Of a stretch of DNA of 64,000 nt, positions 42,920-60,218 are shown one piece after another. Location of the stretch: assembly GCF_017254845.1 (NCBI RefSeq), contig NZ_JAFKCU010000003.1, positions 861,432-925,431 on the forward strand. Reading direction: 5' to 3'. The notes beneath the pieces were generated by a model, which made no database searches, had not been told where the DNA came from, and saw only the letters and a program-made list of their open reading frames with translations. Both the position numbers and the translations under genes were made by a program. Each line of letters starts with the position of its first letter. Position 1 is the stretch's first letter. The stretch is from Algoriphagus pacificus. GTDB lineage: Bacteria > Bacteroidota > Bacteroidia > Cytophagales > Cyclobacteriaceae.

Positions 42920-43376
42920 TTTGAAAGCCAAATTCTTCCGAAAGTTAGTTGAAATAAAATTCAATTTCCAAAAACTTTTAGATCATATAATTTTCCTTGG
43001 CTAACGAATATCAGTAATACCAATACCTTAAAAAAATCTTGAATTACCATCCACTTCCTCTTTAAACTCGAAATATCGAAAAATAAATTTTCCCGAAAAC
43101 TATAGGGTAAAAGTCATTCTAATAAAAATGATTATTAGGAATAGGGTAAAATTTTTGATCTGAGATAGTTCAAACTGAAAAACATTGTAAGATTCTCAAT
43201 TGAGTAATTACACAAGTTTTTTTTGTGCAGGCGATTTTTTCTGAGTTGTAGCCAAAAGTTTCGAATATAAACGGGTCGAGCTGGTGAGCTTGATTGTCCA
43301 CAGGACATCAAGTGTTGCAATCGATGAGGAAATTTCGATCCAAGATAGGGTTAGGTTTGTATAATGAATTGCAAAA
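42920..43376. other. Intergenic stretch, no gene seen
   Basis: About 450 bases, with a hairpin at 43289-43312 (CTTGATTGTCC, ACA, GGACATCAAG, one unpaired T) that may be the spacer of the thioredoxin-like cassette. Confidence 0.4.
43289..43312. repeat. Bulged hairpin, possible cassette spacer apex
   Basis: Ten pairs with one extrahelical base and a 3-base loop. Unpaired bases in the folded strand are a hallmark of integron attC sites, but flanking arms are poorly defined here. Confidence 0.3.
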
Positions 43377-44246
43377 TTAAATATCCTCCAGAATTGCCAT
43401 TTCGAGCTTAGAAATATTACCCTCGCTATAACCGTCGATTATTTCAACAACTTTTGAATCTTTTATTACAATGTGTTTTGGAAAGCTATAAACATTATAA
43501 TCATTCCCATTAACTATAACCACATCATAATTGAAATTGTATTTAGTTAAGAATTTGTCCTTAAGGTAATCAACATCAATATCAGAAATGGGAGCAACAA
43601 AATTGACTTTGGGGTACTTAGTTACCAGTTGATTCAATTCAGGAATTTCTTTGATACACGGGGCACATGTTGTATGCCAGAAGTTTAGAACTATTATTTG
43701 ATCTGAAATTTCACGAGTTTTAATTTCTTTGCCTGAAATACTTATCCACTCTAAATCCGGAATCCTTTCTCCTGCTTTAAATCGAATAACATTTTCCCAT
43801 CCTGGTTCAATCAGATCATAAAAAGAAGTGTCTAACTCAGGTATTTTTTGGGTAATTTGATCAATTCTCATATTGGAACTGAATAAGGTCGAGAATTTTA
43901 AGATATTATCGGAATCTGTCCTACCTATAAAAAAAGTTGATGAGTTACCGTGATCTGCAGAGAAAAGTAGCTGAGTTTGATCTTCTTTTTTAACGAAGTG
44001 GATGATTTGGACGTTACTCAATTTTCTTTCATCACCTTCCAAAATCCTATTATAAGCTTCAACTAAATTGGTCTTATATTCTTCGTTATTACCGTATTCC
44101 GCAGGAATTAAGAAATTAACATAATCTGTAATATTCCGACTGTTGAACGCTTGAACGTAATTATTGACTTCGTCTGTAAAATCCTTTTCTGATTGACAGC
44201 TGAAAGAAATTGCTAAAACGAGAAAAAAGGCTGTTATATTTTTCAT
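43377..44246 (-). CDS. Thioredoxin-fold lipoprotein (TlpA/AhpC-like)
   Basis: 289 residues. Lipobox AISFSCQSEK. N-terminal half (about 20-150) unknown; C-terminal thioredoxin-like domain with IIVLNFWHTTCAPCIKEIPELN (active-site CAPC) and cis-Pro region SFPKHIVIKD. Likely a membrane-bound thiol-disulfide oxidoreductase. Its start lies just downstream of an integrase-tail remnant, in the way a first cassette would sit. Confidence 0.8.
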   Translation of the reverse strand: MKNITAFFLVLAISFSCQSEKDFTDEVNNYVQAFNSRNITDYVNFLIPAEYGNNEEYKTNLVEAYNRILEGDERKLSNVQIIHFVKKEDQTQLLFSADHGNSSTFFIGRTDSDNILKFSTLFSSNMRIDQITQKIPELDTSFYDLIEPGWENVIRFKAGERIPDLEWISISGKEIKTREISDQIIVLNFWHTTCAPCIKEIPELNQLVTKYPKVNFVAPISDIDVDYLKDKFLTKYNFNYDVVIVNGNDYNVYSFPKHIVIKDSKVVEIIDGYSEGNISKLEMAILEDI

Positions 44247-44258
44247 AGTATAATATTG

Positions 44259-44286
44259 CAGTACACATGTATAAACCCCAGTCCTA
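44259..44286 (-). other. attI-like junction, left copy
   Basis: Read on the minus strand: stop TAG of the integrase-tail remnant, then GACTGGGGTTTATACATGTG, TACTGCA, and the cassette gene's ATG about 15 bases later. It matches the junction at 59801-59831 nearly base for base. Confidence 0.55.
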
Positions 44287-44455
44287 CAAGTCTATTGGGT
44301 ATATATTCGCTTTGCTCGCAGGGAATGGGATGTTATAGTAAGCAAATTAAGAATTTCGTCAATCCTATCCACCACAAGCTTTGAATGTTTTTATTTTGAT
44401 AGGAAGTAAATGAATTTCAGTCTCGAAGGTCTTATTACTTTCAATACTCAACAAT
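44284..44455 (-). pseudogene. Integrase C-terminal remnant (left copy)
   Basis: Frameshifted pieces align with the end of the integrase at 49391: ILLSIESNKTFETEIHLLPI (compare [20 protein letters not shown]), VDRIDEILNL, and a tail KANIYPIDL then TAG. The rest of the gene is missing. Confidence 0.65.
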
Positions 44456-44632
44456 ATTTTGTGTTGTCAGCACCCTATAAAAAAGGAACCGTCTTACTCC
44501 AGCCGGGTCTTTTCCAAAAAAAAAAAGTCTAATAGGTATGAAATAGACACCAAATTTTAAGCCCTTTTCGGGTTTAACAAAAAGGTTGATTGAGGTTTCT
44601 TTCAGTTTCCATTTTCTTGTTTTCTTGGTCAT
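44441..44632 (-). CDS. Small ORF after the HipB-like regulator, doubtful
   Basis: 63 codons starting one base after the regulator's stop. No motif of HipA or other toxin is visible; its 3' end runs into the integrase remnant, so it may be a truncated partner gene or chance ORF. Confidence 0.25.
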   Translation of the reverse strand: MTKKTRKWKLKETSINLFVKPEKGLKFGVYFIPIRLFFFGKDPAGVRRFLFYRVLTTQNIVEY

Positions 44633-44633
44633 T

Positions 44634-44846
44634 TCATTCAGGCTCGTTTCTTTCTGTTGGTATAGGTCCTAGTTCATGGCCAAATAATGATAAAACCTGA
44701 TTGACTTTATCAATCATTAATGATTTCTTTCCTTGTTCTAGATCACGCACAAATCGTAGTCCAACGCCAGCTTTAAACGACAGGTCTTCTTGTGTTAACC
44801 CCAGTTTTTTACGTCTTTCTTTTACAAATCGGCTCAGCTTTTCCAT
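44634..44846 (-). CDS. HipB-like XRE regulator
   Basis: 70 residues from ATG 44846. HTH_3 domain RFVKERRKKLGLTQEDLSFKAGVGLRFVRDLEQGKKS, ending VNQVLSLFGHELGPI as in HipB/Y4mF-type antitoxins. An upstream in-frame codon would translate the operator repeats (LYPKGY..., FLYPFGY...), so the shorter start is preferred. Four palindromic operators lie just upstream. No intact HipA toxin follows. Confidence 0.8.
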   Translation of the reverse strand: MEKLSRFVKERRKKLGLTQEDLSFKAGVGLRFVRDLEQGKKSLMIDKVNQVLSLFGHELGPIPTERNEPE

Positions 44847-44854
44847 AATAAAAT

Positions 44855-44995
44855 TATACCCTTTCGGGTATAAATAAAGTGATAAAAACAAAAAAATATA
44901 CCCAAACGGGTATAAAAATGATTTTCTTAGCAAAAATATACCCGTACAGGTATAAATAATAAGCCTAAAACAGAAAGTATACCCGATTAGGTATA
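44855..44995. promoter_or_regulatory. Four phased operators of the HipB-like regulator
   Basis: TATACCC-N4-GGGTATA palindromes at 44855-44872 (loop TTTC), 44897-44914 (AAAC), 44937-44954 (GTAC, right arm AGGTATA) and 44978-44995 (GATT, right arm AGGTATA). Centre spacings are 42, 40 and 41 bases, about four helical turns, so bound dimers would face the same side. The HipB operator of E. coli has a comparable TATCC...GGATA form. Confidence 0.75.
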
Positions 44996-45004
44996 AATTA
45001 ATTA

Positions 45005-45133
45005 GCTAACGATTAAGTATAAGAGCTGTTGCGGATTTCAGGGCAATTACCGGTCCGCCACCCCAAAAGTTTATTAAATGTACAGGCCTTGATTTTACCA
45101 CTTCACCCGCTATTGCTCTTATACAATGTTGTG
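45005..45133. repeat. attC-like palindromic spacer, site 1
   Basis: Begins GCTAAC and ends GTTGTG. Inner arms GTATAAGAGC-n-GTTGCGG (45017-45034) and CCGCTATTGCTCTTATAC (45107-45124) pair imperfectly. Lies between the regulator and the serine hydrolase gene. Confidence 0.6.
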
Positions 45134-45153
45134 ACACGTTCTTTGTGAACTGA

Positions 45154-46983
45154 TTAGTTGCAAAAACTCCTGATTTTGTTTGATTCTTTAACGCCTTCAA
45201 GGCCTGCATATTCAAAATTATCACTAAAGTAATAATAGACCGTACCATTTGGTAATAAGAATACTCTGATTCCACCATAACCACTCATATAAGGAATCAA
45301 TTCGGATTCTGACACTAAACAATTTCCGAAAGATTGAATCTCAGATAGATCCAGCAGCCAAAACCCTTTGGAATATTTAAGGGCATTCCAGCTAGTACTC
45401 AAAACGCTGGAGGTGGAGGCATTCATTACATCTGATAACATCTTTGTATCAAGTATTTGTTCTCCGTTAATAATACCACCGCTAAGCAAAAAATGTCCGA
45501 TTTTGACGATATCATCAGGTAAAAAAACCAATCCATATCCAGAAAATGGCTGGGCTACTGAGTCATATGTCCTTGCAATTTCCCAGCTGCCAGGGCTGGT
45601 TCCAATCGGTTTCAAAATATCTTCAACAACCAAATCACGAAAATAATCTGCTTTTGGACTGTTTCTAATAGATCTTAAATAAGCATTCATGGCTGTTCCG
45701 AGCAAATAGGTATCTGAAGTATGATAGGCAAACTGTTCTCCGGGAGTACTTTTCCTTGGAAATCGATTTATGGAAAATGAAAGTTTTGATTGATGATCTA
45801 AATCCAAAAAGAAGTTAAGGCCCTCCCATTCTGTTTCTAAATAGATGTCTTCATCATTCGTGTCACGGGATTCCAAATAATTACCGGTAGCCATATCCAA
45901 AGCATTTACAAACGTAACATCAGCCCAGTTCCCGCTTTCAACGCTTTCAGGAACGACCGAAGCAATTGTTGTTGATGAACTGCCCGAATACAATTTCTCC
46001 ATACGCATCAATCCTATCCCTGCGGCTATGCTTTTTGCAGTGGAGTAGGAAGGAATACTCAGTGATTCAGGAAATGGGTAGGTCCCATAACGTGTTTCGG
46101 GTGTACTCAGGTAATGTACACCATCAATCAAGAAGCCATAGATTGTCATATCCTGAGAATTCACCTCTGTGGGAGAACTAAATTGAATAGGGTCCGCTCC
46201 AGGATAATCCTTTTCTAATTCGGAAATCGGTTTTACTGGTATGCGTCCCTTCACTTCACGAATGTATTTCTCGATGTACTGCTCTTTTTCGGGAATGGGA
46301 TAGGGTGTGTAATCAGCTTTGACAGTACCCCAAATATTGACTTTGCGGTAAGGGCATGTTTCACTTGCTGTCTGGAACACAAGTGAGGAAGTAGAGCCAT
46401 CGTTTTTAAATAAGAATGACATGGCACCGTTATAAATACAATTTTGATTTTTTTCCTTCAGGGCAAATGGAATTGATACTCTACTGTAACCATTATCTCC
46501 ATTTTCGTCCCAAACCCGACCGGGCTCAACAATGAACTCATAATACGTGCCTTCGTTCATTTGAAAGCCCCTCTTTAGTGGAATGATGTAAGAACCTTGT
46601 TGAATAAATTCAAAGTCAAATAACAGAATATCGGCCCATTCGTCCTGCGAAATTGCACTGGTGCTATCCTCGATTATAAATTTATTTGTCCCTCTGCGGC
46701 CCAAATCACCAAATCGTAATCTGCCTTCAAAGGTATTAGTCGGGAAGGCGGCTTGTTCTGGAACAGCATAATGCTGAAAGTCAACGATGGTATCAGTCTT
46801 GGCAGTATTTAGAAACTCATAGGTGAAGGTGCTGCGATAAACCACTCCGCTGCCATTTAATGATGGAATTTCAGAATCGAGGCCCTTACCTGTTTTGTTA
46901 TTTATGGAACATCCAAAAACACTAATAGCAAGAATCAGCTTCAAACAAATCCGGATCGAATATTTTTCTATACCTATATCCAT
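45154..46983 (-). CDS. Serine hydrolase of beta-lactamase/penicillin-binding fold, lipoprotein
   Basis: 609 residues. Lipobox AISVFGCSINN. N-terminal half (about 40-250) is an unassigned beta-rich region. The C-terminal half is class C-like: SYSTAKSIAAGIGLMRM gives the SxxK motif (STAK), YHTSDTYLLG the YxS/N position, and YGGIRVFLLPNGTVYYY the end. Activity unknown (esterase, peptidase or carboxypeptidase). Located in the cassette region. Confidence 0.75.
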   Translation of the reverse strand: MDIGIEKYSIRICLKLILAISVFGCSINNKTGKGLDSEIPSLNGSGVVYRSTFTYEFLNTAKTDTIVDFQHYAVPEQAAFPTNTFEGRLRFGDLGRRGTNKFIIEDSTSAISQDEWADILLFDFEFIQQGSYIIPLKRGFQMNEGTYYEFIVEPGRVWDENGDNGYSRVSIPFALKEKNQNCIYNGAMSFLFKNDGSTSSLVFQTASETCPYRKVNIWGTVKADYTPYPIPEKEQYIEKYIREVKGRIPVKPISELEKDYPGADPIQFSSPTEVNSQDMTIYGFLIDGVHYLSTPETRYGTYPFPESLSIPSYSTAKSIAAGIGLMRMEKLYSGSSSTTIASVVPESVESGNWADVTFVNALDMATGNYLESRDTNDEDIYLETEWEGLNFFLDLDHQSKLSFSINRFPRKSTPGEQFAYHTSDTYLLGTAMNAYLRSIRNSPKADYFRDLVVEDILKPIGTSPGSWEIARTYDSVAQPFSGYGLVFLPDDIVKIGHFLLSGGIINGEQILDTKMLSDVMNASTSSVLSTSWNALKYSKGFWLLDLSEIQSFGNCLVSESELIPYMSGYGGIRVFLLPNGTVYYYFSDNFEYAGLEGVKESNKIRSFCN

Positions 46984-47037
46984 GATGTTGTCAATGTTTC
47001 ACAACGTAAAGAGTTTTAAACACATTCCGCCAAAAAA

Positions 47038-47074
47038 TTAACCACACTAGTTAACGTCAACCGGATGTGGTTAA
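47038..47074. repeat. Inverted repeat near left end of IS91-like pair
   Basis: TTAACCACA and TGTGGTTAA pair around CTAGTTAACGTCAACCGGA. It could be a cassette spacer or the end of the IS; sequence to its right becomes GC-richer. Confidence 0.4.
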
Positions 47075-47287
47075 AACCGTGTTGGACCAAACCGACCTTC
47101 TTATGGGCATTGATCTTCACAGGTTTTCGGGATTTGTCTCTTTTTTGTTTTTTATCTTTTTGGTCCTGGGCTCCAGGTATCTTCTTTTTCCCTTGTCAGC
47201 GATTCAATCAGGCATAGGATTCCCCGGGAGTTTTGTACCCAAGATAACAGTTTGAAGCTATTCAAAGAACTTGCATGCCTACTTTAT

Positions 47288-48454
47288 TTAAGAACTGTTC
47301 TGATGTATGCTTGGCACCACATAGACCATCCTTCCTTTTCTGCAACAGGGGCATCTGAACATTTCTTCTCCCAAAATACCCACCAACAATCCGTAGGTAC
47401 TATATCCAAGGTACTGCGACTCTTTTTTCTGGCTTTTCAGCAAGGCAAAGCAGTCTATCCTGCTACCTGTTGCCGGGGAAAGGATCCCGTAATACCGGAT
47501 CTTGTAAAAGCCGGTGGGAAGGATGTGTTGAAGAAACCTTCGGATAAACTCTGTGGTGGACAGCTCCATCAATCCAATCCTGTTGGTCCGGTAATCTTTG
47601 TATCGGAACTTCACAGATGTTTTGTCAACCTCTTGGATCCTGCTGTTGCTGATAGCCACCCGATGGGTATATCTTCCCAGGTAACTGACAACCTGCCCCG
47701 CTCCCCGGAAGGTCTTTTTGATATAGACATGCCAGTTCTTTTCATAGAGTAGCTTTCTGAGCGCTTTTCTGTCCTCATAAAGCTCCCTTTCCCGATCAGG
47801 CAGTGTGAGTTCGCCATTGTTCAGGTGTTTTTCCAGACCGGAAAAAAGCAGGCCCCGGAACACAGGTGACAGTGCCTTGACGGGAACGAAAAACTTCCGG
47901 TGCGAGTAAACCCATTCCATCCCATCCTGATCCACTCCTCCTGCAGGGATGAGCATATGGATGTGGGGATGGTAGCTCAGCGATTGTCCCCAGGTATGCA
48001 GTACTGATAAGTTTCCTGTTTGGACTCCCAAAAATGAGGGGTTTGAACCTGTTTTCCTGACCGCCTCGGCAGAGGATGCGAACAACAGGTCATAGCACTT
48101 CTTCTGGTTCAGGTAGAACAGGGGGCGCAACACCTGGGGAACCGTGAACACCACATGAAAATACCGCACAGGCAGAAGCCTCGACTTAAGCCTTTCCACC
48201 CACAGCAACTGCCGCACATACTGGCATTTGGGGCAGTGCCTGTTCCTGCAGCTGTTGTAACAGGTTTTGACGTGATCACAATCCTCACAGATCAACCGAT
48301 GACTGCCTTGGATACTGGTCCTACAGGTGACTATTGCCCGGAATGCTTTGTGCTGGTCAGCAGTGAGACGGTGCCGGGAAAGATAATCCTGCTGACAGTT
48401 CCTGAAAACGTCTGCCAGCTCGGGGCCAGAGGACCGTTTGTTTACCGTTTCCAT
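47288..48454 (-). CDS. IS91-family transposase
   Basis: 388 residues. N-terminal zinc-binding region CEDCDHVKTCYNSCRNRHCPKCQ (split C..C.. pattern), HxH-containing rolling-circle region SYHPHIHMLIPAGG, and GYLGRYTHRVAISN with the likely catalytic tyrosines. A C-terminal zinc knuckle (CPCCRKGRM) closes it. HUH-type single-strand transposition. Co-directional with the recombinase just upstream. Confidence 0.85.
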   Translation of the reverse strand: METVNKRSSGPELADVFRNCQQDYLSRHRLTADQHKAFRAIVTCRTSIQGSHRLICEDCDHVKTCYNSCRNRHCPKCQYVRQLLWVERLKSRLLPVRYFHVVFTVPQVLRPLFYLNQKKCYDLLFASSAEAVRKTGSNPSFLGVQTGNLSVLHTWGQSLSYHPHIHMLIPAGGVDQDGMEWVYSHRKFFVPVKALSPVFRGLLFSGLEKHLNNGELTLPDRERELYEDRKALRKLLYEKNWHVYIKKTFRGAGQVVSYLGRYTHRVAISNSRIQEVDKTSVKFRYKDYRTNRIGLMELSTTEFIRRFLQHILPTGFYKIRYYGILSPATGSRIDCFALLKSQKKESQYLGYSTYGLLVGILGEEMFRCPCCRKGRMVYVVPSIHQNSS

Positions 48455-49264
48455 TTAAAGTCTGTCCAATGGACTTTCTATTTGGGAAGGCTCAAACTTG
48501 CACACGTGGAGATAGACCGTAGTGGTCTGCAGGGAACGGTGTCCCAACAGTTCCTGGATCATACGCACATTCACACCCGATTCCAGCAGGTGTGTGGCAA
48601 AGGAATGGCGCAGGGTATGGAAGGAAGCATCCTTGGTGATATGGGCTTTCACCATCGCCGCTCTAAGTACCGTCTGGGCACTGGTAAAGCTGTAGGGTTT
48701 TCCGGCAAACCTCCCCTCAAACAAAAACTCCTTCGGACGATAGAGACGGTAATAGTCCCGGAGTCTGCCCAATAATTCCCGGGGAAGAAGCGTGTACCTC
48801 CCCTTGTTGCCTTTTCCTGATCTCACCCGAATCTGCATTCGGTCACTGTCAAGATCATCGGGTCTTAAATGGACCACTTCACTTAACCGAAGCCCAGACC
48901 CATAGGTCAAGGCCACCAGACAATAATGCTTCCGGTTCTTCAGGACATCCAATATCCGGCAGATCTCTTCCTTCGAAAAAACAACCGGTATGGGCTTGGG
49001 CTTTTTGGGACGTCGGATTTTTAGCTGTTCCCAGTCACTTCCCAGAACCTCCATGGTCAATATCCTAAATGCACTGATGATTAAATTGGTACTGGAGGGA
49101 GAAAGCCCCTCACCGTCGATCCTCTTGAGCAAATAACCCTTCAGTTCCTCCGAACTGATCAGATCAGGACTTTTGGACAGATTCCTGCTGACCAATGAAA
49201 TACAACTCAGGTAGGACTTGATCGTTCTGTCTGAATAATTCCGCAAACGCATCGCTTCATACAT
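48455..49264 (-). CDS. Tyrosine recombinase associated with IS91-like element
   Basis: 269 residues. SAM-like N-terminal core-binding domain (NYSDRTIKSYLSCISLVSR) and catalytic residues in GSGLRLSEVV (Arg), [16 protein letters not shown] (His, Arg), LLGHRSLQTT (His) and VYLHV (Tyr). It ends in IESPLDRL, like integron and XerC-like enzymes. Such recombinases accompany IS91-type transposases in Bacteroidota. Distinct from the longer integrase at 49391. Confidence 0.85.
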   Translation of the reverse strand: MYEAMRLRNYSDRTIKSYLSCISLVSRNLSKSPDLISSEELKGYLLKRIDGEGLSPSSTNLIISAFRILTMEVLGSDWEQLKIRRPKKPKPIPVVFSKEEICRILDVLKNRKHYCLVALTYGSGLRLSEVVHLRPDDLDSDRMQIRVRSGKGNKGRYTLLPRELLGRLRDYYRLYRPKEFLFEGRFAGKPYSFTSAQTVLRAAMVKAHITKDASFHTLRHSFATHLLESGVNVRMIQELLGHRSLQTTTVYLHVCKFEPSQIESPLDRL

Positions 49265-49370
49265 GCGCTGACGGAGGTTTTTTTTTCCATGTTTTTAAAA
49301 ATTAAAATGAAACATGGATAAAATTAAATGGTACAACCTGATTTACAGGGGATTGATCAATTAAAAAACT

Positions 49371-49385
49371 ACCGACAAAGTCGGT
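49371..49385 (-). terminator. Short hairpin after the integron-like integrase
   Basis: ACCGAC-AAA-GTCGGT, followed on the minus strand by AGTTTTTTAA. It starts six bases beyond the integrase stop. Confidence 0.6.
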
Positions 49386-49390
49386 TTAGT

Positions 49391-50584
49391 TCAACACCTC
49401 GCTAAACCTAAAGATTCCGAGTCTATAGCGTTTATATCGCTTTTATCCACAGAGGTATTAGGTGTTGTTGAAACCAAATTAAGAATTTCGTCAATCCCAT
49501 CAAGCGGGCTCTGAATATTTTTATTTGAGATAGAAAGTACATGTGTATAAATCTCTGTGGTCTTACTGCTTTCATGACCTAACAATACCTGAACGTAGCG
49601 CAGATTCGTTCCTTTTTGAAGTAGATGCGTGGCAAAACTATGTCTTAATGAATGCACCGTTGCCCATGGATTTGAATTGCTTTTTTCTACTGCCCTTCGA
49701 AATACAGCCTGGATACTGGTTGCGGAATATTGTCCTCCCTCCTGCCCTTCAAAAAGCCAATATGAAGGTTTATAAGCTAAGTAGTATTTTCTCAAGAGAG
49801 TCAGTAACACAGGAGATAGAACCGTTTTCCGGTCTTTTTTACCTTTTGCACCTTTGATGAAAATATAACCTTCATCCGAATGTATGTCCCGTACTCTTAA
49901 TTTGATGGCTTAACTTATCCTTAAACCAGCACTATAAATTAACATCAGAACAGTGCGATGCTTCAGGTTTTCTACACTTGCCAAGATGGCTTTGATTTCT
50001 TCCTGGCTCAGGATATTTGGAAGAACAAGGCTTTTTTTAGGTCTTTGAATATCATAAATGGTCCGCTCCCTACCCAAAACATGTTCATAATAAGCCTTGA
50101 TAGCGTTGATCAAAGTATTTTGCGCACTTTCTGAAATCTTGTATTTACTGATTTGGTGGTACACGAAGGATTCAATGTCCTCCTTGCTGAGATCCTTCAG
50201 TTCTCTGGCTTCAAAAAATGAAAGAAATGGCCTCAATGCTGAGCAATAACCCTTAATAGTGGATTGGCTAAAAGCCTTTAAGATTAGCTTTTGTTTCAAC
50301 GCAATTAAGATGGATTCAGAAGATTCATTTAGGTTTTTAGATGGAATAATTGATTTTTTTACCGATTCCTCAATAGTAAAAATTCCATTAAAAATAGCTT
50401 GAAGTAGCTTCCAATTTTCCTCAGTATGGACAATGCTCCATAGTTTCTGGGTAGGATGATAAAAGCTGGTATTCAGTTTTTTGAATTTTTCTCTTTCATT
50501 TTTAAGCTGAAATGGAATATAAACTTTAATCCTTCCAGCTTTGGGCAATGGCCTGTAAATAACTATGAATTGATTCGATTCCAT
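49391..50584 (-). pseudogene. Integron-like tyrosine recombinase with one in-frame TAA
   Basis: 397 codons in a single frame with TAA at 49910-49912 (AGLRIS, stop, AIKLRV; neighbouring families have Glu there). N-terminal extension of about 80 residues (FIVIYRPLPKAGRIKVYIPF ... LWSIVHTEENWK) precedes the usual core-binding domain. Catalytic Arg lies in YSAGLRIS just before the stop; His-Arg in [16 protein letters not shown], His in [10 protein letters not shown], Tyr in IYTHV. The tail [10 protein letters not shown] resembles the SPLD end of IntI. Remnants of its tail occur at 44284 and 59829, each next to a cassette gene. Confidence 0.8.
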
Positions 50585-50635
50585 GGCTTTTTGAAAGGCA
50601 TATTAAAAGAACCATTTCTAAGTAGTCAGTTGATA

Positions 50636-50685
50636 ATCGTTTATAGTCGTTTGTTGTCATTTACAATCGTTTGTTGTCGGTTAGA
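50636..50685. repeat. Five 10-bp tandem repeats upstream of integrase
   Basis: ATCGTTTATA, GTCGTTTGTT, GTCATTTACA, ATCGTTTGTT, GTCGGTTAGA in direct succession, ending 50 bases upstream of the integrase start. The period is one helical turn, suggesting a protein-binding array. Confidence 0.6.
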
Positions 50686-50896
50686 AAAATAAAACTAAAA
50701 AAACCTCAGGACACTAGTTTTTAAAAAAAAGTAAATTAATTTTGTTGTACTTTTAAATAAGGACATATAATTCCTAAAAGGTACATTTTTTTGTACCTCA
50801 CCTATTGTAAACAATTCATTTTCAATCATTTCATTTTTCTGCATTGGTAAATAAATTTAAAAAATGATTTGAGGCGAACCTGCCTGCCGGTAGGCA

Positions 50897-50940
50897 GGTA
50901 TCTTCTCCAAATTCTGTATCGGAAAGTAACCTAAAGAATT
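50897..50940 (+). repeat. Direct repeat upstream of integrase, copy 1
   Basis: GGCAGGTATCTTCTCCAAAT, then TCTGTATCGGAAAGTAA. Matches 59985-60026 apart from a GT insertion and a few changes. In both places it lies on the 5' side of integrase sequence. Confidence 0.6.
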
Positions 50941-50982
50941 GCTAAACAGCAGTTAAGAAAGCGTCTAAGGTATTATCAAAGG

Positions 50983-51102
50983 CTCGACTATGAGTATTTG
51001 CGTGGTTTAGCATTAAACCTTGAAAGTACACACCAAATTGAAAATCCTGGGGAATGTTCAGAATTAAGCGAAAACAAGCAATTACTTATAGCCATTGTTA
51101 GC
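50983..51102. repeat. attC-like palindromic spacer, site A
   Basis: Starts CTCGACTATGAGTATTTGCG and ends TTACTTATAGCCATTGTTAGC. Terminal arms GGCTATGAGTA-type and its complement pair; interior is nearly identical to site B over about 110 bases. Confidence 0.7.
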
Positions 51103-51786
51103 TGCAGTTTTACTATTTCGAAAATTCAACAATAATTTTATGCTTACTAAATGCGAATAAAGTACAATAGGTACAATTACAGCAGGAAGCCAAACAAAAG
51201 GAAAGTAAGTTACACCAATATTGGGTTGGTCAAATGCTAATTGCTGAATTGGGGTTTGAGCACTCAAAACTGCTATAGTCAAAATATTAACTAACAGTCC
51301 TAAACAAATGAAATTCCATATTAAAAGCCCCTTTTTTCCAATCCATTTCTTCACAAATACGGCATAGTAAATTATTGGTGCTGAAATGCCAGAAAGAATA
51401 TCATAGTTATAACCCTCAAAAGTCATTAAATCAGGAATATAACCTTCTATGAAAACATAGTACAATACGATTTCTACAGGAATTCTAATCGTATGCAATA
51501 AAGTCAACCATTTGAAATTTTCCTCATTGCTAATCGTATTGTTTTTTGTAAAGAAAAAATATACAATAACGAAAAGGATACCTGGAGCCAAAAGAAAAAC
51601 AAATCTTGGTGGTATCGTATTTTGAACTCGGTAAAACCCAAAATATCCCAAGATTCCGACTACAGCCATCCAAATGAAGATACCTGCAAGTTGCTTTCTA
51701 CTTTTATGGGTATGATAAAAACACAACAAAGTAACTAAGGTTGTAAAAGTGAAAAATATTACGATTGAAGTAGAAATTTCTGACAT
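51082..51786 (-). CDS. Multi-pass membrane protein, unknown
   Basis: 234 residues, about seven hydrophobic helices (for example IVIFFTFTTLVTLLCFYHT and LLIWNFICLGLLVNILTIAVL in part). No family recognised. Shares a cassette-sized unit with the Crp/Fnr gene upstream, lying between attC-like sites A and B. Confidence 0.6.
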   Translation of the reverse strand: MSEISTSIVIFFTFTTLVTLLCFYHTHKSRKQLAGIFIWMAVVGILGYFGFYRVQNTIPPRFVFLLAPGILFVIVYFFFTKNNTISNEENFKWLTLLHTIRIPVEIVLYYVFIEGYIPDLMTFEGYNYDILSGISAPIIYYAVFVKKWIGKKGLLIWNFICLGLLVNILTIAVLSAQTPIQQLAFDQPNIGVTYFPFVWLPAVIVPIVLYSHLVSIKLLLNFRNSKTAANNGYK

Positions 51787-51859
51787 GCCAATTAAACTTT
51801 AATGCAAAGTTCAATAGGTGAGATTCAAATCCACTTGACAAAAGGCAAGAATTAAAAAT

Positions 51860-52435
51860 CTACATTTTTTTTCGCAACCTGCTCAAAGTGCTATCGGTAA
51901 CACCTAAATAAGAAGCAATATACTTTAGCGGCGCATATTGTAGTATTTGGGGTTCTATGCTTAAAAGGTTCTGATATCTCTCTTTAGCTGTTCGATTTAT
52001 CATTCCAAAATTTCTGCTTTGAGAAGCAATAAATTCTTTTACCAAAATGGCTCTGCCAAAATCTCTGAAAGCAGGTTTATCATGAAATAGCGTATTTAAT
52101 TCTTCATACGAAATTCTAAACCCTTTACATTTTGTAATAGCTTGTATATATGCCTCTGAACGAATTCGATTAAAGAATGAAGTAATTTCAAATACAATGT
52201 TGTTTTCTGTAAAGAAGTCTATGGTAATTTCTTCACCTTCCAGGTTGTAGAGAAAAGTTCGCATTAATCCACTTTCCAAATAGAAGTAATCATCACTTAT
52301 TTCATTTTCCCTTAGCAAGTAGTCTTTTTCCTCTATTTCAATCGGATGAAATGTGTTTGCAATTTGGTCAGCCTCATCTCTTGAAATTTTGACGACACTT
52401 AAAATGAAGTTTACTAACGACTCTCTATTGTTCAT
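51860..52435 (-). CDS. Crp/Fnr-family regulator of cassette
   Basis: 191 residues. Cyclic-nucleotide-binding-like domain (IEEKDYLLRENEISDDYFYLESGLMRTF in part; ITIDFFTENNIVFEITSFF) and a shortened HTH (LKYIASYLGVTDSTLSRLRKK). Same strand as the membrane protein 73 bases downstream, which it may regulate. Begins just inside attC-like site B. Confidence 0.82.
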   Translation of the reverse strand: MNNRESLVNFILSVVKISRDEADQIANTFHPIEIEEKDYLLRENEISDDYFYLESGLMRTFLYNLEGEEITIDFFTENNIVFEITSFFNRIRSEAYIQAITKCKGFRISYEELNTLFHDKPAFRDFGRAILVKEFIASQSRNFGMINRTAKERYQNLLSIEPQILQYAPLKYIASYLGVTDSTLSRLRKKM

Positions 52436-52449
52436 ATTATCATATTACA

Positions 52450-52572
52450 GCTAACGGTCTCGGCTATGAGTTTTGCGTGGTTTAGCATTAAACCTTGAAA
52501 GTACACACCAAATTGAAAATCCTGAGGGATTTTCAGAATTAAGCGAAAACAAGCAATTACTTATAGCCATTG
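52450..52572. repeat. attC-like palindromic spacer, site B
   Basis: Starts GCTAACGGTCTCGGCTATGAG and ends TTATAGCCATTG. Its arms and interior match site A (50983-51102). The first eight bases CAGCTAAC (52448-52455) are the reverse complement of GTTAGCTG at 51097-51104, so the two-gene cassette has inverted ends. Confidence 0.7.
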
Positions 52573-52586
52573 AAGGCATTACGTTT

Positions 52587-53171: not shown

Positions 53172-53367
53172 AATATTCTATTTTAAATAAATGCTAGCGC
53201 CCAGATATGGCATATGCATTTCGGCTTTCAAATATTGGTATTGTTTCTTTGTTGCATTTCACTTTCAGATAACTCAGGTGAGGTATGTGGTTTATCGTTT
53301 GTTATACGGTGTTCCTCAACCCCTAAAAACAAGAGACCTTCAAACCAGCCTGCCGGCTGGCAGGCAT

Positions 53368-55527: not shown

Positions 55528-55859
55528 ATATTTGTTTTAGTATTTGTCTAATGAGATAATCTGATACTGCTCAAAAAATGCTATCGCCATTGGATCGTAA
55601 GTTTTCTGAAGGTCTTCGCATTCAGTTTTTTTTGGTTTTCTCCTCACCTCTTCCCTGCCGTAACGGTCCTCAGCTTGGAGAAGGCAGGTTTTAGGAGCCA
55701 TTCTCTTCCAGCCTACTCCTGACTTCTTAAAGATTCTGCTTTTCATATTTACTCTGAACCACACTCTGTATCTATGGTGATGTTGTGCAACGTATTTAAT
55801 TCTTAAAATCTTTTGGTACATCAGGTCTTACTTGAGTCAAAATAAGCTCAAAGCGAAAA
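55528..55859. other. Gap upstream of S9 peptidase
   Basis: About 330 bases. An ORF of 94 codons (55537-55821) is basic and without motif, so is not called. Presumably carries the peptidase promoter and the end of the next cassette. Confidence 0.35.
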
Positions 55860-56237
55860 TTATTTTTCATTTTCGAACACGGATTTGTGTCTGCTAAACC
55901 TTTGAACCCAACCGTCTTCTGTAAAAATTTCTCCATGTAAGCCATCAGAAAGTTCTGCTACATTTTCGCCATCCATAAAAACTTTGAGTCCACTATCTAA
56001 ATCGTTACTCTCCTGAATGGCAAAAAGAAAATCATGCATAGAGTTCTCCAGTACCTTTTCCAAAACATCCGCAACGACTTGTTTTTGGTCTTGAGTTAAT
56101 TTTGAAAGTTTGGCATGTAACTCTTTTGATTCCTGACTTCTCCATTTACCTTGAATTAGTCCTCTGAACCAATCGATTTGTTTATCTCTCAACTTTTCAA
56201 CTATCAATTTTCCAAATTTGTCTAATTTGTTATTCAT
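55860..56237 (-). CDS. Small unknown soluble protein
   Basis: 125 residues, helical N-terminal half (LDKFGKLIVEKLRDKQIDWF; KLSKLTQDQKQVVADVLEKV) and a beta-containing end (HGEIFTEDGWVQRFS). Good start and codon pattern but no family recognised. Single-gene cassette. Confidence 0.55.
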   Translation of the reverse strand: MNNKLDKFGKLIVEKLRDKQIDWFRGLIQGKWRSQESKELHAKLSKLTQDQKQVVADVLEKVLENSMHDFLFAIQESNDLDSGLKVFMDGENVAELSDGLHGEIFTEDGWVQRFSRHKSVFENEK

Positions 56238-56361
56238 TGAGCTTAGGTTTTAAAATGGCTTAAAGCGTTAAGTGTTTGAAGCTTTAGCTTTGGTATTAGC
56301 GATTGCCTTGTGCCGCTATAGTTTCATACATGGTGGTAAAGGCAGGCTTTGGTTCATTAAT

Positions 56362-56793
56362 TTATTTTTTTATTTGCCTTTTGACTTCATCTTTAGATTC
56401 CTTCAAAACCTTTTTCACTTCTTCAAATCTTGTGTCTGGATGGTTATTCCAGTCCATAAGTCTATGATTTACAACTCTTCCATTTTCGTACTTCTCCAAT
56501 GTAAATCTTACATTTTGCATTGCGGGTCTTCGATGTATGTATTCCCCCGTAATATCAACTGAAGCTTTATAAAGAGCACAAAACAGACTATACTTTCCAT
56601 TCGCTATATCATCATCACATATACGGTCATCTTGTTTATTCCACTTAGTTGAATCAGATAATATAGAATCTGCTCTCTGAATTATTTTTAAGTCTATCGA
56701 GTCGAATACGAGATCACGATTTTCTTCATTTGTCTGAGCAATGGCTATTTGTGATGTGAATAAGACGGAAAGAAGAAGCAATATTTGTTTCAT
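56362..56793 (-). CDS. Small secreted unknown protein
   Basis: 143 residues with a clear signal peptide (LLLLSVLFTSQIAIAQ). Conserved-looking centre FCALYKASVDITGEYIHRRP and a basic tail. Four Cys/Trp-poor strands; no domain recognised. Lies next to attC-like site E. Confidence 0.6.
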   Translation of the reverse strand: MKQILLLLSVLFTSQIAIAQTNEENRDLVFDSIDLKIIQRADSILSDSTKWNKQDDRICDDDIANGKYSLFCALYKASVDITGEYIHRRPAMQNVRFTLEKYENGRVVNHRLMDWNNHPDTRFEEVKKVLKESKDEVKRQIKK

Positions 56794-56817
56794 AATATTT
56801 TGAATTTACAGCAAGAC

Positions 56818-56879
56818 GCTAACTAGTGTATAAACGCTATAAAGGCACTTACATGCCTACGGTTGTTTGTATTAACGCC
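56818..56879. repeat. attC-like palindromic spacer, site E
   Basis: Starts GCTAACTAGTGTATAAACGC and ends GTTTGTATTAACGCC, with an apical hairpin GGCACTTACATGCC. Arms pair imperfectly. Confidence 0.45.
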
Positions 56880-57133
56880 ATGAATATACTGAAAAAGAAG
56901 TACACGCCCTTTCTGACTTGCTTACTCAATCCGCAAAATAATCAATAGGTAAGAAGCGATGAAAATGGGTTTCATTAGCATAAGTAGTCATTAGTATTGA
57001 TATAGAGAAAAGCGGGTATGATTAGTGGGCTATCCTACCTAATGGCTTTTCGTCTGAGTACGAAGATAAAATCTAATATATATTCAGGGTTGACATTTCT
57101 ACCAGATACGGTATATGCACTAGCGATAGTGCT

Positions 57134-57727
57134 CTATGATTTTTGGTCTTTAGCAATTCCCTTGAGAATCATTTCCATGCCCCACTTCAACAGATCTTTA
57201 GATTGCTCATTATCCAATCCGCAAACATCTTTGGTGACAATAAGGGGTTCGATACCCATTAATACAGTAAACAGGTTGATCAGATTGTTTTTTTCGCTTT
57301 TGGTAAGATTGGCTTTTTCCAGAACTAATCGTAAGGTCTTTACCCTTCTGGCGCCTCTTTTTAGTTTTGACGTACTGGTGATCGCAACGGCCAGATACTT
57401 TCTGAAGGCGTGTTCGTGGTCTAGTGCCAGCGTGTTATAGTATTTCTGAACACCCAAAATAGCTTCTTCAAGATCTAAATCCTTAACGCTGTCGTATAAG
57501 GTTTCCGGTTTTTGGGTCTTGATCGCTAAACCGGCTTCTCCAGCCAGTTCATCTACATTAGAATAATACCTATAGATCGTGGCTCTTGATATTCCGGCTT
57601 GCTTGGAGATATCATCAAGGGTAAAATCGGTTCCTTTATTTAAAAAATACTGAGCTGCTGCCAGTATTTTATCCCGGGTTCCCAGCTTTTGGTTAACTCT
57701 CCCTTTATCTAGAAAATCATTCTTCAT
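57134..57727 (-). CDS. TetR-family regulator
   Basis: 197 residues. HTH RDKILAAAQYFLNKGTDFTLDDISKQAGISRATIYRYYSN (in part) at residues about 17-60, then a helical ligand-binding domain. Divergent from the cupin gene, with two palindromic operators overlapping both start codons. Confidence 0.85.
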   Translation of the reverse strand: MKNDFLDKGRVNQKLGTRDKILAAAQYFLNKGTDFTLDDISKQAGISRATIYRYYSNVDELAGEAGLAIKTQKPETLYDSVKDLDLEEAILGVQKYYNTLALDHEHAFRKYLAVAITSTSKLKRGARRVKTLRLVLEKANLTKSEKNNLINLFTVLMGIEPLIVTKDVCGLDNEQSKDLLKWGMEMILKGIAKDQKS

Positions 57728-57796
57728 GAGACAAATATCTCATAAAGTTTTGAACAACCAAAAACTTGTTTTACTTTTATGAGACAACAATCTCAT
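57726..57796. promoter_or_regulatory. Twin TetR operators between TetR and cupin genes
   Basis: ATGAGA-N6-TCTCAT at 57726-57743 and again at 57779-57796 (spacers CAAATA and CAACAA). The first overlaps the TetR start codon and the second the annotated cupin start, so bound repressor would block both genes. Confidence 0.8.
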
Positions 57797-58234
57797 AAAA
57801 TGAAACAAAATATAACAAAATGGGTGCTAGGCCACAAAGTAACGGCCTACCCAACCACCGGAGACTACGATTTAATGATGGGAGAAACGCCACCCCATGT
57901 TTCGGGACCGCCGCCTCATTTCCATAATTCTTACAAGGAGTCTTTTCTCGTCATAGAGGGCGAAATGGAGTTTATGGTCAATGGTGAAGTCACACTGGTG
58001 AAAGCCGGAGAGTCCGTTGATATTCCACCGCAAACGCTTCATACGTTTGGCAATAAGGGTGATAAGTCCTGCAAGTGGGTCAATATCCACAGTCCGAAAG
58101 GCTTTGCCAGTTTTTTTGAAAAAATGGGCGTACCGGCCGAAGAAGCGAATGCTCAGGAAAAATCGGTAGCCCCCGACCTGATTCAGGAAGTCATAAAAAA
58201 TGCAGCCAACTATGATATGGTGATAAAAATGTGA
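57779..58234 (+). CDS. Cupin-domain protein
   Basis: 151 residues from 57779, or 144 from the ATG at 57800, which is more plausible since the first ATG lies inside an operator. Cupin motifs GPPPHFHNSYKESFLVIEGEMEF and GESVDIPPQTLHTFGN (metal ligands His, His, Glu, His). Substrate unknown. Controlled by the adjacent TetR. Confidence 0.82.
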   Translation: MRQQSHKMKQNITKWVLGHKVTAYPTTGDYDLMMGETPPHVSGPPPHFHNSYKESFLVIEGEMEFMVNGEVTLVKAGESVDIPPQTLHTFGNKGDKSCKWVNIHSPKGFASFFEKMGVPAEEANAQEKSVAPDLIQEVIKNAANYDMVIKM

Positions 58235-58276
58235 GTGGGAAAAACGACCAATTGATTAAACAAAACACTTTTAAGA

Positions 58277-58786
58277 ATGAAAAGAATAATTACTTACACG
58301 GGAATGCTATTACTATGGGGATTGACAATATCGTTGGTCTCCTGCGAAAAAAATGAAGAAGAGCCTAAGGATGAAGTGGCGCAAATGATTGAGGAAGTGC
58401 GAAACATCACCCAAAGCTACACGCTACACAGTAATGGGGTAGCCGCCGGGTGGGCGACTGACCTTTCTGGTTGCGTAGCACACCCAACGGAAGGTGGCAT
58501 GGGGCATCACTTCGGGCGTTTGGAATATATTGACGGCCGGATTAATCATTTGGAGCCGCAAGTCTTACTGTATGCTCCTGATGCTAACGGAACTATGGAA
58601 TTGTTAGGAGTTGAATACTTGATTCCTTTTGCAATACACTCCGAAGACAAAGAACCACCCACGCTTTTTGGCCAGAATTACCATAAGAATCAGCAAATAG
58701 AAATGTGGGCACTTCATCTTTGGTCAGAAAAGGAAAATCCTAACGGTATGTTTTATGACTGGAACCCTGATGTAAGTTGTCAGTAA
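58277..58786 (+). CDS. Unknown lipoprotein
   Basis: 169 residues. Lipobox LVSCEKNEEE. The core AGWATDLSGCVAHPTEGGMG ... LEPQVLLYAPD ... HLWSEKENPNGMFYDWNPDV is a conserved-looking family with His- and Trp-rich ends, but no function is known to me. Follows the cupin gene on the same strand after 42 bases; may be an operon. Confidence 0.6.
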   Translation: MKRIITYTGMLLLWGLTISLVSCEKNEEEPKDEVAQMIEEVRNITQSYTLHSNGVAAGWATDLSGCVAHPTEGGMGHHFGRLEYIDGRINHLEPQVLLYAPDANGTMELLGVEYLIPFAIHSEDKEPPTLFGQNYHKNQQIEMWALHLWSEKENPNGMFYDWNPDVSCQ

Positions 58787-58824
58787 ACGAGCGCTAAGAA
58801 ATTATTTCGCTTTTTCAACTCATT

Positions 58825-58886
58825 ACTAACGGTTTGCATATTGTGCGTATCCCGCAGGGTATGCACTATATGCGTTGTTGTGCAGC
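58825..58886. repeat. attC-like palindromic spacer, site F
   Basis: ACTAACGGTTTGCATATTGT ... TATGCACTATATGCGTTGTT: arms GCATATTGTGCGTA and TATGCACTATATGC pair at 12 of 14 positions, around TCCCGCAGGG. Ends in GTTGTGCAGC (58877-58886). Confidence 0.65.
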
Positions 58887-58891
58887 GTTTT

Positions 58892-59794
58892 TTATTTTAT
58901 TCTAATTGGCAAATTAACTTCTGATTTCACTGGTTTTCCTTTGTATGTTGCAGGATACCAATCGTTCATAAGGACTGAGTCTTTTTTGACTAGTTCGATG
59001 ATTTCTAACGATTTCATTGGTTCCCAAATCTTAATTGTGTTTAAGTCAACTTGTCCATTTTCGTCAATTATCATCTGAAGTGTGATGAAGCTTTTCTTAG
59101 GGACTTCTGTTTTGGCTCTGTCAATTTCATATTCCTTCAAAACAGCTTTCAACGAGTCATCGCCAAATTTGAATTCAGCATAGTTATCAGGCATTTCATA
59201 GATTCCAAGACTGTCCTTAATTCCCATTTTTATTTCGTTCTGGTCTAGAATCCAATCCCGACCTTTTAGTTTTTCATTTTCTGAGTAGAATTTGAATTTT
59301 CCGTTGAATATTCTAAATGTGGTAGTGTCGTTCACACCTTCCTTACTCAGGAGTTTTCCTGCGTAGTAGTTCTCTCTTATCTGTAGAGTATAATGAGCTG
59401 TAATTAGTTTTTCTTCAAACGGGTTATCGCTAAATGATAGAATTGCTTTGTCGACTAAGAATTTACTTTCTGAGCCATCAATTACGTCAGTCCATTCGTC
59501 ATAAATAGCACTGATAATTTCTAATTCGGGAGAAATTGTGAATTGAACTTGATGGCCTGTGAATCCATCGTTGAATGTGTTCGTAATAATCAGGTTGTTG
59601 TCATTTATTTTTATTGATGCGGCTGTATCAAGAAGGCCATCCATATCAAGTTTAAGGAAGTAGTCATGAGGAAAGTAACTGTTGTCTTGTTCATAAACGG
59701 GTTGATATGTAACAATCGCATGTCCTAACTGTCCAAAGACAGAAGTTCCTGAAAAAATCAGAAGTCCAATTAATATGTTCGTCAGTTTGTTCAT
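58892..59794 (-). CDS. TonB-C-like secreted protein
   Basis: About 300 residues from ATG 59794. Signal peptide (LIGLLIFSGTSVFGQ), unknown middle, and a C-terminal TonB-like domain: ITLQMIIDENGQVDLNTIKI and WYPATYKGKPVKSEVNLPI. The cassette has 10-base inverted ends (GTTGTGCAGC at 58877, GCTGCACAAC at 59801) and directly follows an integrase-tail remnant. Confidence 0.65.
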   Translation of the reverse strand: MNKLTNILIGLLIFSGTSVFGQLGHAIVTYQPVYEQDNSYFPHDYFLKLDMDGLLDTAASIKINDNNLIITNTFNDGFTGHQVQFTISPELEIISAIYDEWTDVIDGSESKFLVDKAILSFSDNPFEEKLITAHYTLQIRENYYAGKLLSKEGVNDTTTFRIFNGKFKFYSENEKLKGRDWILDQNEIKMGIKDSLGIYEMPDNYAEFKFGDDSLKAVLKEYEIDRAKTEVPKKSFITLQMIIDENGQVDLNTIKIWEPMKSLEIIELVKKDSVLMNDWYPATYKGKPVKSEVNLPIRIK

Positions 59795-59800
59795 TTTAAT

Positions 59801-59831
59801 GCTGCACAACACTTGTATAAACCCCTTCCTA
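59801..59831 (-). other. attI-like junction, right copy
   Basis: On the minus strand: TAG, then GAAGGGGTTTATACAAGTG, TTGTGCAGC, and the cassette's ATG a few bases later. The corresponding stretch of the copy at 44259-44286 is nearly the same. Confidence 0.6.
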
Positions 59832-59951
59832 CTTGTCTATTGCGTATATATTCGCTTTGTCCACAGGTGTATGGGGTGTTTTGGAAACCAAATTAGGGAT
59901 TTCGTCAATCCCATCAAGTGGTCTTTGAATGTTTTATTTGAGATAGAAAGC
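59829..59951 (-). pseudogene. Integrase C-terminal remnant (right copy)
   Basis: Gives VLSISNK, then after a one-base shift [37 protein letters not shown]. Matches the tail of the 49391 integrase ([20 protein letters not shown]). It is followed to the right by the copy of the integrase-upstream repeat (59985), so most of the gene was deleted. Confidence 0.75.
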
Positions 59952-59984
59952 ACTACCCTTCAAATAGCCAAGAGGAAGATTTAA

Positions 59985-60026
59985 AAGGCAGGTAGTATCT
60001 TCTCCAAATTCTGTATTGGGAGGTAG
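59985..60026 (+). repeat. Direct repeat upstream of integrase, copy 2
   Basis: GGCAGGTAGTATCTTCTCCA, then AATTCTGTATTGGGAGGTA. Pairs with 50897-50940 and marks the 5' side of the deleted integrase. Confidence 0.6.
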
Positions 60027-60218
60027 GTAATATAAAATAAGTCAAATCTATTACACTAAAATGCAAATAATCCCCTCTGAACAGATCGTTTTGAGGTGGA
60101 AGAATGTGTCTTTTTAACTATTTGGGCATCTTACTTATTTAAAAAGTACTGTATTATTTTTAGTAGGTTTTTGTAATTTAAACAGTTGATTTTTTTTGAC
60201 TTATTAAATTCATTCAAA

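What the first reader, a model, noticed from the sequence alone, without database searches (positions are those of the whole stretch)
43200..60030. Integron-like cassette chain with recombinase reading into its cassettes
Seen: ten or so short gene units, most minus strand and many with signal peptides or membrane helices, are separated by imperfect palindromes ending in GCTAAC/GTTAGC or GTTGTG. A tyrosine recombinase with an SPLD tail lies among them, and its 3' tail also occurs, without the rest of the gene, at two other places. In both of these the tail runs directly into a cassette gene on the same strand. Inference: a cassette-capture system in which entry occurs just downstream of the recombinase stop codon, unlike classical integrons where attI lies upstream of a divergent intI.
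Basis: partly seen in the sequence, partly recalled or inferred. Interest (0 to 1): 0.85.

Follow-up and report, generated by a model that had tools for sequence, protein, structure and literature searches.

The report
Reverse integrons with patch-less integrases
The region is a gene-collecting system of Bacteroidota that inserts foreign genes right behind its own recombinase gene, and it uses a recombinase lacking the part thought to be essential for this job, so integrons in these bacteria have probably been overlooked.

Summary
The window holds three tandem, partly decayed integron units: one full-length integrase gene broken by an in-frame TAA, and two relics that mainly keep the 3' end and attI. 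Close relatives share the integrase 3' end up to ...GTGTT and then continue into unrelated genes. Across many Bacteroidota this integrase family is followed on the same strand by attC-like hairpin arrays. Cassette borders fall at G|TT: R'' of an attC is the reverse complement of the preceding R' in 36 of 49 adjacent pairs, 8% for random pairs. The attI heptamer behind the integrase stop predicts the first called attC in 20 of 44 loci, 4% permuted. A 98.7% identical cassette sits at attI in a same-genus genome and inside an array of Flavobacterium enshiense. The geometry is that of Treponema's 'reverse' integrons. New are an integrase clade lacking the IntI-specific insert (51 of 51 members), usually with an N-terminal extension that looks HARP-like (weak scores), and homologues in 147 of 295 genomes of the class. 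No experiment was done; the window's own unit is probably inactive.

The parts
59797..60025 (-). Unit 1: relic of an integrase unit (3' tail plus 31 nt of upstream DNA 59995-60025; most of the gene deleted)
59804..59810 (-). attI-1 crossover heptamer GTTGTGC
   Evidence: reverse complement of the R'' of attC 58824-58883
58892..59794 (-). First cassette gene of unit 1 (no NCBIfam match)
58824..58883 (-). attC site A, R'' GCACAAC, R' GTTAGTA
   Evidence: fold z -3.1
52449..52575 (-). attC site C, R' GTTAGCT intact, R'' degenerate
   Evidence: fold z -4.1
51082..52435 (-). Two-gene cassette (cNMP-binding regulator 51860-52435, hydrophobic protein 51082-51786) between site C and site D
   Evidence: GTTAGCT 52455 / AGCTAAC 51103
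50985..51103 (-). attC site D, R'' AGCTAAC intact, R' lost; near-copy of site C
   Evidence: z -2.0
50640..50683 (-). AAACG repeats spaced about 10 bp upstream of the integrase; homology with the closest relative L039 ends here
49391..50584 (-). Unit 2: integrase (HARP-like N-terminal part, SAM-like domain, catalytic domain), in-frame TAA at 49910-49912
49389..49395 (-). attI-2 heptamer GTTGAAC, overlapping the integrase stop codon, followed by an IS91-type insertion
47288..49264 (-). IS91-type element (tyrosine recombinase 48455-49264, transposase 47288-48454) behind attI-2
46999..47005 (-). Cassette 5' border heptamer GTTGTGA
45154..46983 (-). Cassette gene of unit 2 (609 aa, only a weak NCBIfam match)
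45004..45134 (-). attC site B, R'' TCACAAC, R' GTTAGCT
   Evidence: fold z -0.4
44634..44933 (-). HipB/Y4mF-type antitoxin gene inside the array
   Evidence: TIGR03070
44251..44460 (-). Unit 3: relic of the integrase 3' end with attI-3 (core 44258-44266, decayed)
43377..44246 (-). Cassette gene of unit 3 (TlpA/ResA-like thioredoxin-fold protein)
   Evidence: matches below the curated cut-offs

Best explanation
This is a decayed chain of three chromosomal integron units of the reverse type. Each unit was an integrase gene, an attI site at or just behind the integrase stop codon, and a same-strand array of gene cassettes bounded by attC hairpins. Cassettes enter and leave by recombination at G|TT, between attI and the attC of a circular cassette, and by inference through a folded single strand as in classical integrons. 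The enzyme belongs to a clade of integron-like tyrosine recombinases, widespread in Bacteroidota, that lack the IntI-specific insert and usually carry an N-terminal extension that looks HARP-like. Shown by sequence: junction, orientation, attC structure, border rule, movement of cassettes between genomes. Inferred: that this recombinase performs the reaction, that attC is used as single strand, and that the HARP-like part helps bind it. The window's unit 2 is probably dead or dormant (in-frame stop, IS91-type element behind attI).
For: Shared 3' junction followed by unrelated genes. Strict attC scan of 21 stretches: 81 hits on the integrase strand, 24 on the other, 6 in shuffled sequence, 371 kb. 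Border rule R''(n+1)=rc(R'(n)) in 36 of 49 adjacent pairs, 8.1% of random pairs, 12 of 78 within one site. attI heptamer predicts the first called attC in 20 of 44 loci, 3.9% permuted; among 44 of the 80 genome-contig loci, 24 had an attC call and 10 matched with one of the first three calls, 8.2% permuted. attC covariance model: 0 hits in 19 control loci beside XerC/D-like genes, 185 kb; in those 44 genome-contig loci 13 hits, all 13 on the integrase strand, 12 downstream of it. Near-identical cassette with ends at GTTAG in L043 and F. enshiense L198, and twin platforms in G094 diverging at GTT. Shared-segment ends carry GTT in 37 of 47 left and 44 of 47 right ends against 9-12% background (redundant set). 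No TIGR02249 match over cut-off in 98 genomes or in 9 genomes of genome-contig loci.
Against: No recombination was observed. The window's integrase is broken. The covariance model built from other loci did not find the window's own sites at E up to 0.5, and site B does not fold better than shuffles. Many family loci failed the attI test: 10 of 54 were not testable and 24 of 44 missed with the first called attC, among them the window relic, whose R'' my caller placed 3 nt off. My attC caller has false positives: with relaxed settings 24 same-strand and 19 opposite hits in 20 control loci, and 56 opposite hits beside 121 same-strand ones in family loci. The border-rule pairs are partly redundant: 8 of the 36 come from one repeated 227-nt cassette of G094. 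Another recombinase acting in trans cannot be excluded by sequence alone.
Confidence: 0.9

Rival explanations
1. A CALIN-like cassette graveyard: the attC arrays were built by a canonical IntI elsewhere or in the past, and the neighbouring recombinase is an unrelated Xer-type enzyme.
For: attC sites look canonical in layout; the recombinase scores below the TIGR02249 cut-off; cassettes clearly travel between genomes.
Against: No canonical IntI over cut-off in 98 genomes or in 9 genomes of genome-contig loci. The 3' end of this recombinase family itself carries the attI: 20 of 44 loci match, and twin platforms diverge at GTT directly behind integrase-ssb.
Confidence: 0.05
2. Ordinary dispersed repeats or terminators between genes; the recombinase tails are chance duplications.
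For: Some spacers are weak; a G+C-rich hairpin repeat is also present (near 50880 and 53350).
Against: Zero covariance-model hits in control loci, the border rule and near-identical cassettes with fixed ends do not fit dispersed repeats. Covariation in aligned sites is supportive but the sites were chosen for pairing.
Confidence: 0.02
3. The recombinase is the integrase of an ordinary integrative element with a 3' att site, and the arrays are passengers.
For: Tyrosine recombinases of phages and ICEs often have att sites next to the gene (recalled); the unit is found beside different genes in related genomes.
Against: No element-wide homology: relatives share the unit from about the upstream repeats to attI; the junction is followed by cassettes that end in attC.
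Confidence: 0.03

Closest known systems
Classical integrons (class 1, Vibrio; IntI + attI + attC cassettes)
   Same: attC layout R''-L''-L'-R', G|TT border, R''/R' rule between neighbours, a group II intron at a cassette border in L041
   Different: attI lies 3' of the integrase on the same strand; the integrase lacks the IntI insert (59-64 against 101 residues) and usually has an N-terminal extension
Reverse integron of Treponema denticola (PMC4909258, passages read)
   Different: Different phylum. Recalled, not tested: the Treponema enzyme is a normal IntI with the insert
CALIN (attC clusters without integrase; PMC9024848, passages read)
   Same: A program requiring a canonical IntI would probably call these arrays CALIN (inference)
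   Different: Here a dedicated recombinase with its own attI is present
Archaeal XerA / Xer recombinases
   Different: XerC/D-like control genes in relatives have no attC model hits nearby and form a separate clade
HARP domain of SMARCAL1 (4O66)
   Same: N-terminal domain: top Foldseek match (E 0.074, probability 0.87), Pfam HARP in 4 of 25 members at E up to 0.05, best 5.7e-6, profile to PDB E 0.014
   Different: Weak scores, rmsd 8.1; a HARP-like domain fused to a recombinase is an inference

Membership tests
Integron (functional sense) | attC-type hairpin sites between cassettes | tested here: met
   four sites in the window, two of them half decayed
Integron (functional sense) | Cassette borders at G|TT with R''(n+1) complementary to R'(n) | tested here: met
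   36 of 49 pairs against 8.1% random
Integron (functional sense) | attI next to the integrase where new cassettes enter | tested here: met
   20 of 44 loci against 3.9%; twin platforms
Integron (functional sense) | Integrase recombines attI x attC through single-stranded attC | not testable with these tools
   needs an assay
Integron integrase IntI (TIGR02249) | Score over the curated cut-off of 265 bits | tested here: not met
   202 bits; 0 of 98 genomes with a match over cut-off
Integron integrase IntI (TIGR02249) | IntI-specific additional domain / I2 helix before the HxLRH box | tested here: not met
   59-64 residues in 51 of 51 members against 101 in 20 of 20 canonical IntI; profile positions about 181-238 left unmatched in the family rows listed
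Integron integrase IntI (TIGR02249) | Grouping with canonical IntI in a tree | tested here: inconclusive
   canonical IntI 20 of 20 one clade (100); family 50 of 51 one clade (85); their mutual order with the IS91 integrase is unresolved (quick tree)
Classical integron layout | Divergent intI with attI upstream of it | tested here: not met
   attI 3' of the gene, same strand
HARP domain (PF07443) | Score over the Pfam gathering cut-off | tested here: inconclusive
   window integrase N-terminal half: no HARP row. Scores seen were below the 25-bit cut-off (19.3, 18.1, 16.1; 14.4); the best member had E 5.7e-6, its score was not shown

The most novel reading that the evidence does not exclude
A second lineage of integrons: tyrosine recombinases that never had, or lost, the I2 insert run complete attI/attC cassette arrays across Bacteroidota, with a HARP-like (forked or single-stranded DNA binding) N-terminal domain, and sometimes a neighbouring ssb gene, doing the hairpin-recognition work that I2 does in IntI. 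They could be living representatives of the state before I2 was acquired.
Probability: 0.4. Interest if true: 0.95.

Novelty: new variant of a known kind. Interest (0 to 1): 0.88.

Why it matters
Current models hold that acquiring the I2 helix let a tyrosine recombinase use attC hairpins, and that intermediates are lacking (abstract and passages of PMC7790495). A survey with IntegronFinder reported very few integrons in Bacteroidetes: only In0 in the earlier study, then a complete one in Salinibacter ruber (passages of PMC9024848). Homologues of this patch-less integrase occur in 147 of 295 genomes sampled from the window's class (I did not check each of them for an array). If they run integrons as the checked loci suggest, both statements need revision: integrons of this class (presumably Bacteroidia) were missed because the usual search defines them by the IntI insert (inference), and nature offers a test of whether I2 is needed. 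Practical gain: a large cassette pool (this window's includes an antitoxin gene) and a simple search rule: patch-less integrase with same-strand attC behind it.

Tried and rejected
Whole-genome attC counting with covariance model R2 was too insensitive: 15 of 98 genomes with a match, and sites known (for example in L043 and L050) were missed; not used. First model R1 had no base pairs, dropped; alignment A5 was not built into a model.

First two attC scanners were poor (113 hits in shuffled sequence); replaced by the strict filter.

Bacteroidetes LexA motifs (PMC8565304 passages) do not match, by eye, the repeats upstream of the integrase; SOS control not supported. The repeats are limited to few members: AAACG twice or more in 8 of 51 family loci, 1 of 19 canonical IntI, 0 of 19 Xer.

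Idea that the recombinase tails are only 3' fragments: rejected for tail 1, which keeps upstream DNA.
Full report
What is there. The window is G000:C23:861432-925431, the end of a contig. On the minus strand between 60.0 and 43.4 kb lie three integron units in tandem. Unit 2 has the recombinase (49391-50584), interrupted by a TAA at 49910-49912. Units 1 and 3 are relics: the 3' tail at 59797-59953 and 44251-44460, and for unit 1 also a 31-nt stretch that lies upstream of the gene in unit 2; its 19-nt core occurs nowhere else in the genome. Each tail leads into an unrelated gene on the same strand.

Border arithmetic in the window. In an integron the R'' box of a cassette's attC is the reverse complement of the R' box in front of that cassette. 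Three such pairs exist here: GTTGTGC 59810 / GCACAAC 58883, GTTAGCT 52455 / AGCTAAC 51103, GTTGTGA 47005 / TCACAAC 45134. Four attC-like hairpins were recognised (A, C, D, B); folding as single DNA strands gave z -3.1, -4.1, -2.0 and -0.4 (the last is site B, not better than shuffles), and attI-1 gave -0.2, as expected for a site that does not fold.

Close relatives. Among 98 genomes, 13 other same-genus genomes carry the recombinase at 64-82% identity, several with in-frame stops. The 3' flanks of L039, L041, L043 and L044 and the window's three copies align up to ...GTGTT and then diverge. Upstream, homology with the nearest relatives stops at or before a block of AAACG repeats, so the conserved unit is about repeats-integrase-attI.

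Wider family. Homologues of 40-50% identity in other genera of the order, and in the same genus, show same-strand attC arrays behind the gene. A strict structural scan of 21 stretches (371 kb) gave 81 hits on the integrase strand, 24 on the other (partly palindromes seen on both strands) and 6 in shuffled sequence; the set includes near-duplicates (L040/L041, L044-L047). Over 13 of these stretches, 36 of 49 adjacent attC pairs obey the border rule in 3 of 3 letters, 8.1% for random pairs, 12 of 78 within a site; 8 of the 36 are copies of one 227-nt cassette in genome G094.

attI test. For 54 integrase loci (40 from the class sample, 13 from relatives, one window relic) I asked whether the R'' of the first called attC reappears, reverse-complemented, between 40 nt before and 450 nt behind the integrase stop. 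Ten loci had no usable call or flank; 20 of the other 44 had the exact heptamer, all 20 at 12-154 nt behind the stop, against 3.9% with R'' boxes of other loci. In six further loci the second or third called attC matched. The other 18 did not match, the window relic among them because its R'' was called 3 nt off. Of the 80 loci from genome contigs I tested 44: 24 had an attC call and 10 matched with one of the first three, permuted 8.2%. Controls: 20 loci beside XerC/D-like genes gave 24 same-strand and 19 opposite hits with relaxed settings, where 40 family loci gave 121 and 56.

Covariance model. Model R2 (31 sites) gave 0 hits in 19 of the 20 control loci (185 kb; L153 was left out because one search showed a family member in it) and 56 in 42 sources, the window and 41 family or own-genome loci that include its own seeds, but none in the window. 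In the 44 genome-contig loci it gave 13 hits, 13 on the integrase strand and 12 downstream, in Arundinibacter roseus, Flavobacterium enshiense, F. aciduliphilum, Aquiflexum sp., Rufibacter sp. and one MAG. At least two of the 44 loci (L189, L193) appear, from equal contig lengths, to be contigs already in the class sample (L128, L116); L128 gave a seed.

Movement. A 1442-bp cassette in L043, directly at attI, is 98.7% identical to one inside the array of F. enshiense DK69 (L198); the shared stretch begins at GTTAGTG and ends at CGTTAGC. In complete genome G094 two integrase-ssb-attI platforms, 99.75% identical over 1629 bp, diverge right after TATAAACAAGTT into different first cassettes; the integrase of one copy (L052) is interrupted by an insertion (ssb by TIGR00621 for L051). 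Across shared segments of at least 96% identity, 37 of 47 left and 44 of 47 right ends carry GTT, background 9-12%; all but one come from L051, L052 and L053. The L043 cassette also occurs in L041, 83% identical, beside a group II intron.

The N-terminal part. Residues in front of the core: median 116 (0-318) in 51 family members, 33.5 in canonical IntI, 25 in Xer; L053 has no extension. The repeat R+...F.Y...i...K.l.g..W......W.iP (alignment of 19 chosen members) resembles HARP: Pfam HARP in 4 of 25 members at E up to 0.05, best 5.7e-6; profile to PDB 4O66 E 0.014, behind an unrelated designed protein at 0.0059; top Foldseek match 4O66, E 0.074. This is suggestive, not proof.

How widespread. 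147 of 295 genomes drawn from the class have a match at E up to 1e-45 to the L055 integrase; the threshold is my choice from the gap between this group and Xer, and the arrays of most of these genomes were not checked. Relatives with the same N-terminal pattern were also seen in a Spirochaetota, a Firmicutes and an archaeal MAG (L202, L200, L206).

Known or not. Reverse geometry: known from Treponema (PMC4909258, passages) and mentioned for Spirochaetota in PMC9668308 (passage). Bacteroidetes: passages of PMC9024848; two surveys name Bacteroidota among phyla with integrons without describing this type (passages of PMC8618304 and PMC9668308). Role of I2: abstract and passages of PMC7790495. Searches of the open PMC library listed no paper that, by title or abstract, describes such integrons in Bacteroidota; preprints and subscription papers were not held, so a description elsewhere is possible.

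Verdict. It works like an integron. By the usual definition of the integrase it is not a member, because the IntI insert is absent. I file it as a new variant of a known kind.

Noticed in passing
L041 12288-14150 (minus); same ORF arrangement in L040: A group II intron (Rfam RF00029, RF01999; RT/maturase TIGR04416) sits at the border of a cassette, like the IIC-attC introns known from integrons.
   Followed up: partly
L050 9573-9836, L051 3462-3827, L052 3365-3730: An ssb-like gene lies between integrase and cassettes in three loci of two genomes; only the L051 copy was checked by profile.
   Followed up: partly
window 50640-50683 and upstream of L039, L040, L048, L049: AAACG repeats spaced about 10 bp in front of the integrase gene; function unknown, possibly a protein binding array.
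   Followed up: partly
L053 upstream of the integrase: Several copies of a 24-nt repeat (CATGAAAATTTAAGCGATACACAG-like) directly before the integrase.
   Followed up: no
L015-L021 (seven same-genus genomes): Seven genomes carry an equally scored, multiply stopped copy of the integrase; the four fetched with long flanks (L044-L047) have the same following genes, so a decayed unit seems to have spread recently or been conserved.
   Followed up: no
window 47288-49264 and 49389-49395: The IS91-type element carries its own IntI/XerA-like recombinase without the IntI insert and follows a GAAC at attI-2.
   Followed up: partly
window 60186-62378: A plus-strand gene upstream of unit 1 with a TIR-like N-terminus (weak PADLOC matches).
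   Followed up: no
window 44634-44933: HipB/Y4mF-type antitoxin gene between attC site B and unit 3; no toxin partner was looked for.
   Followed up: no
several class-sample contigs (e.g. G195:C25, G163:C54, G266:C250): Assemblies often end shortly behind the integrase, as repetitive cassette arrays would cause.
   Followed up: no
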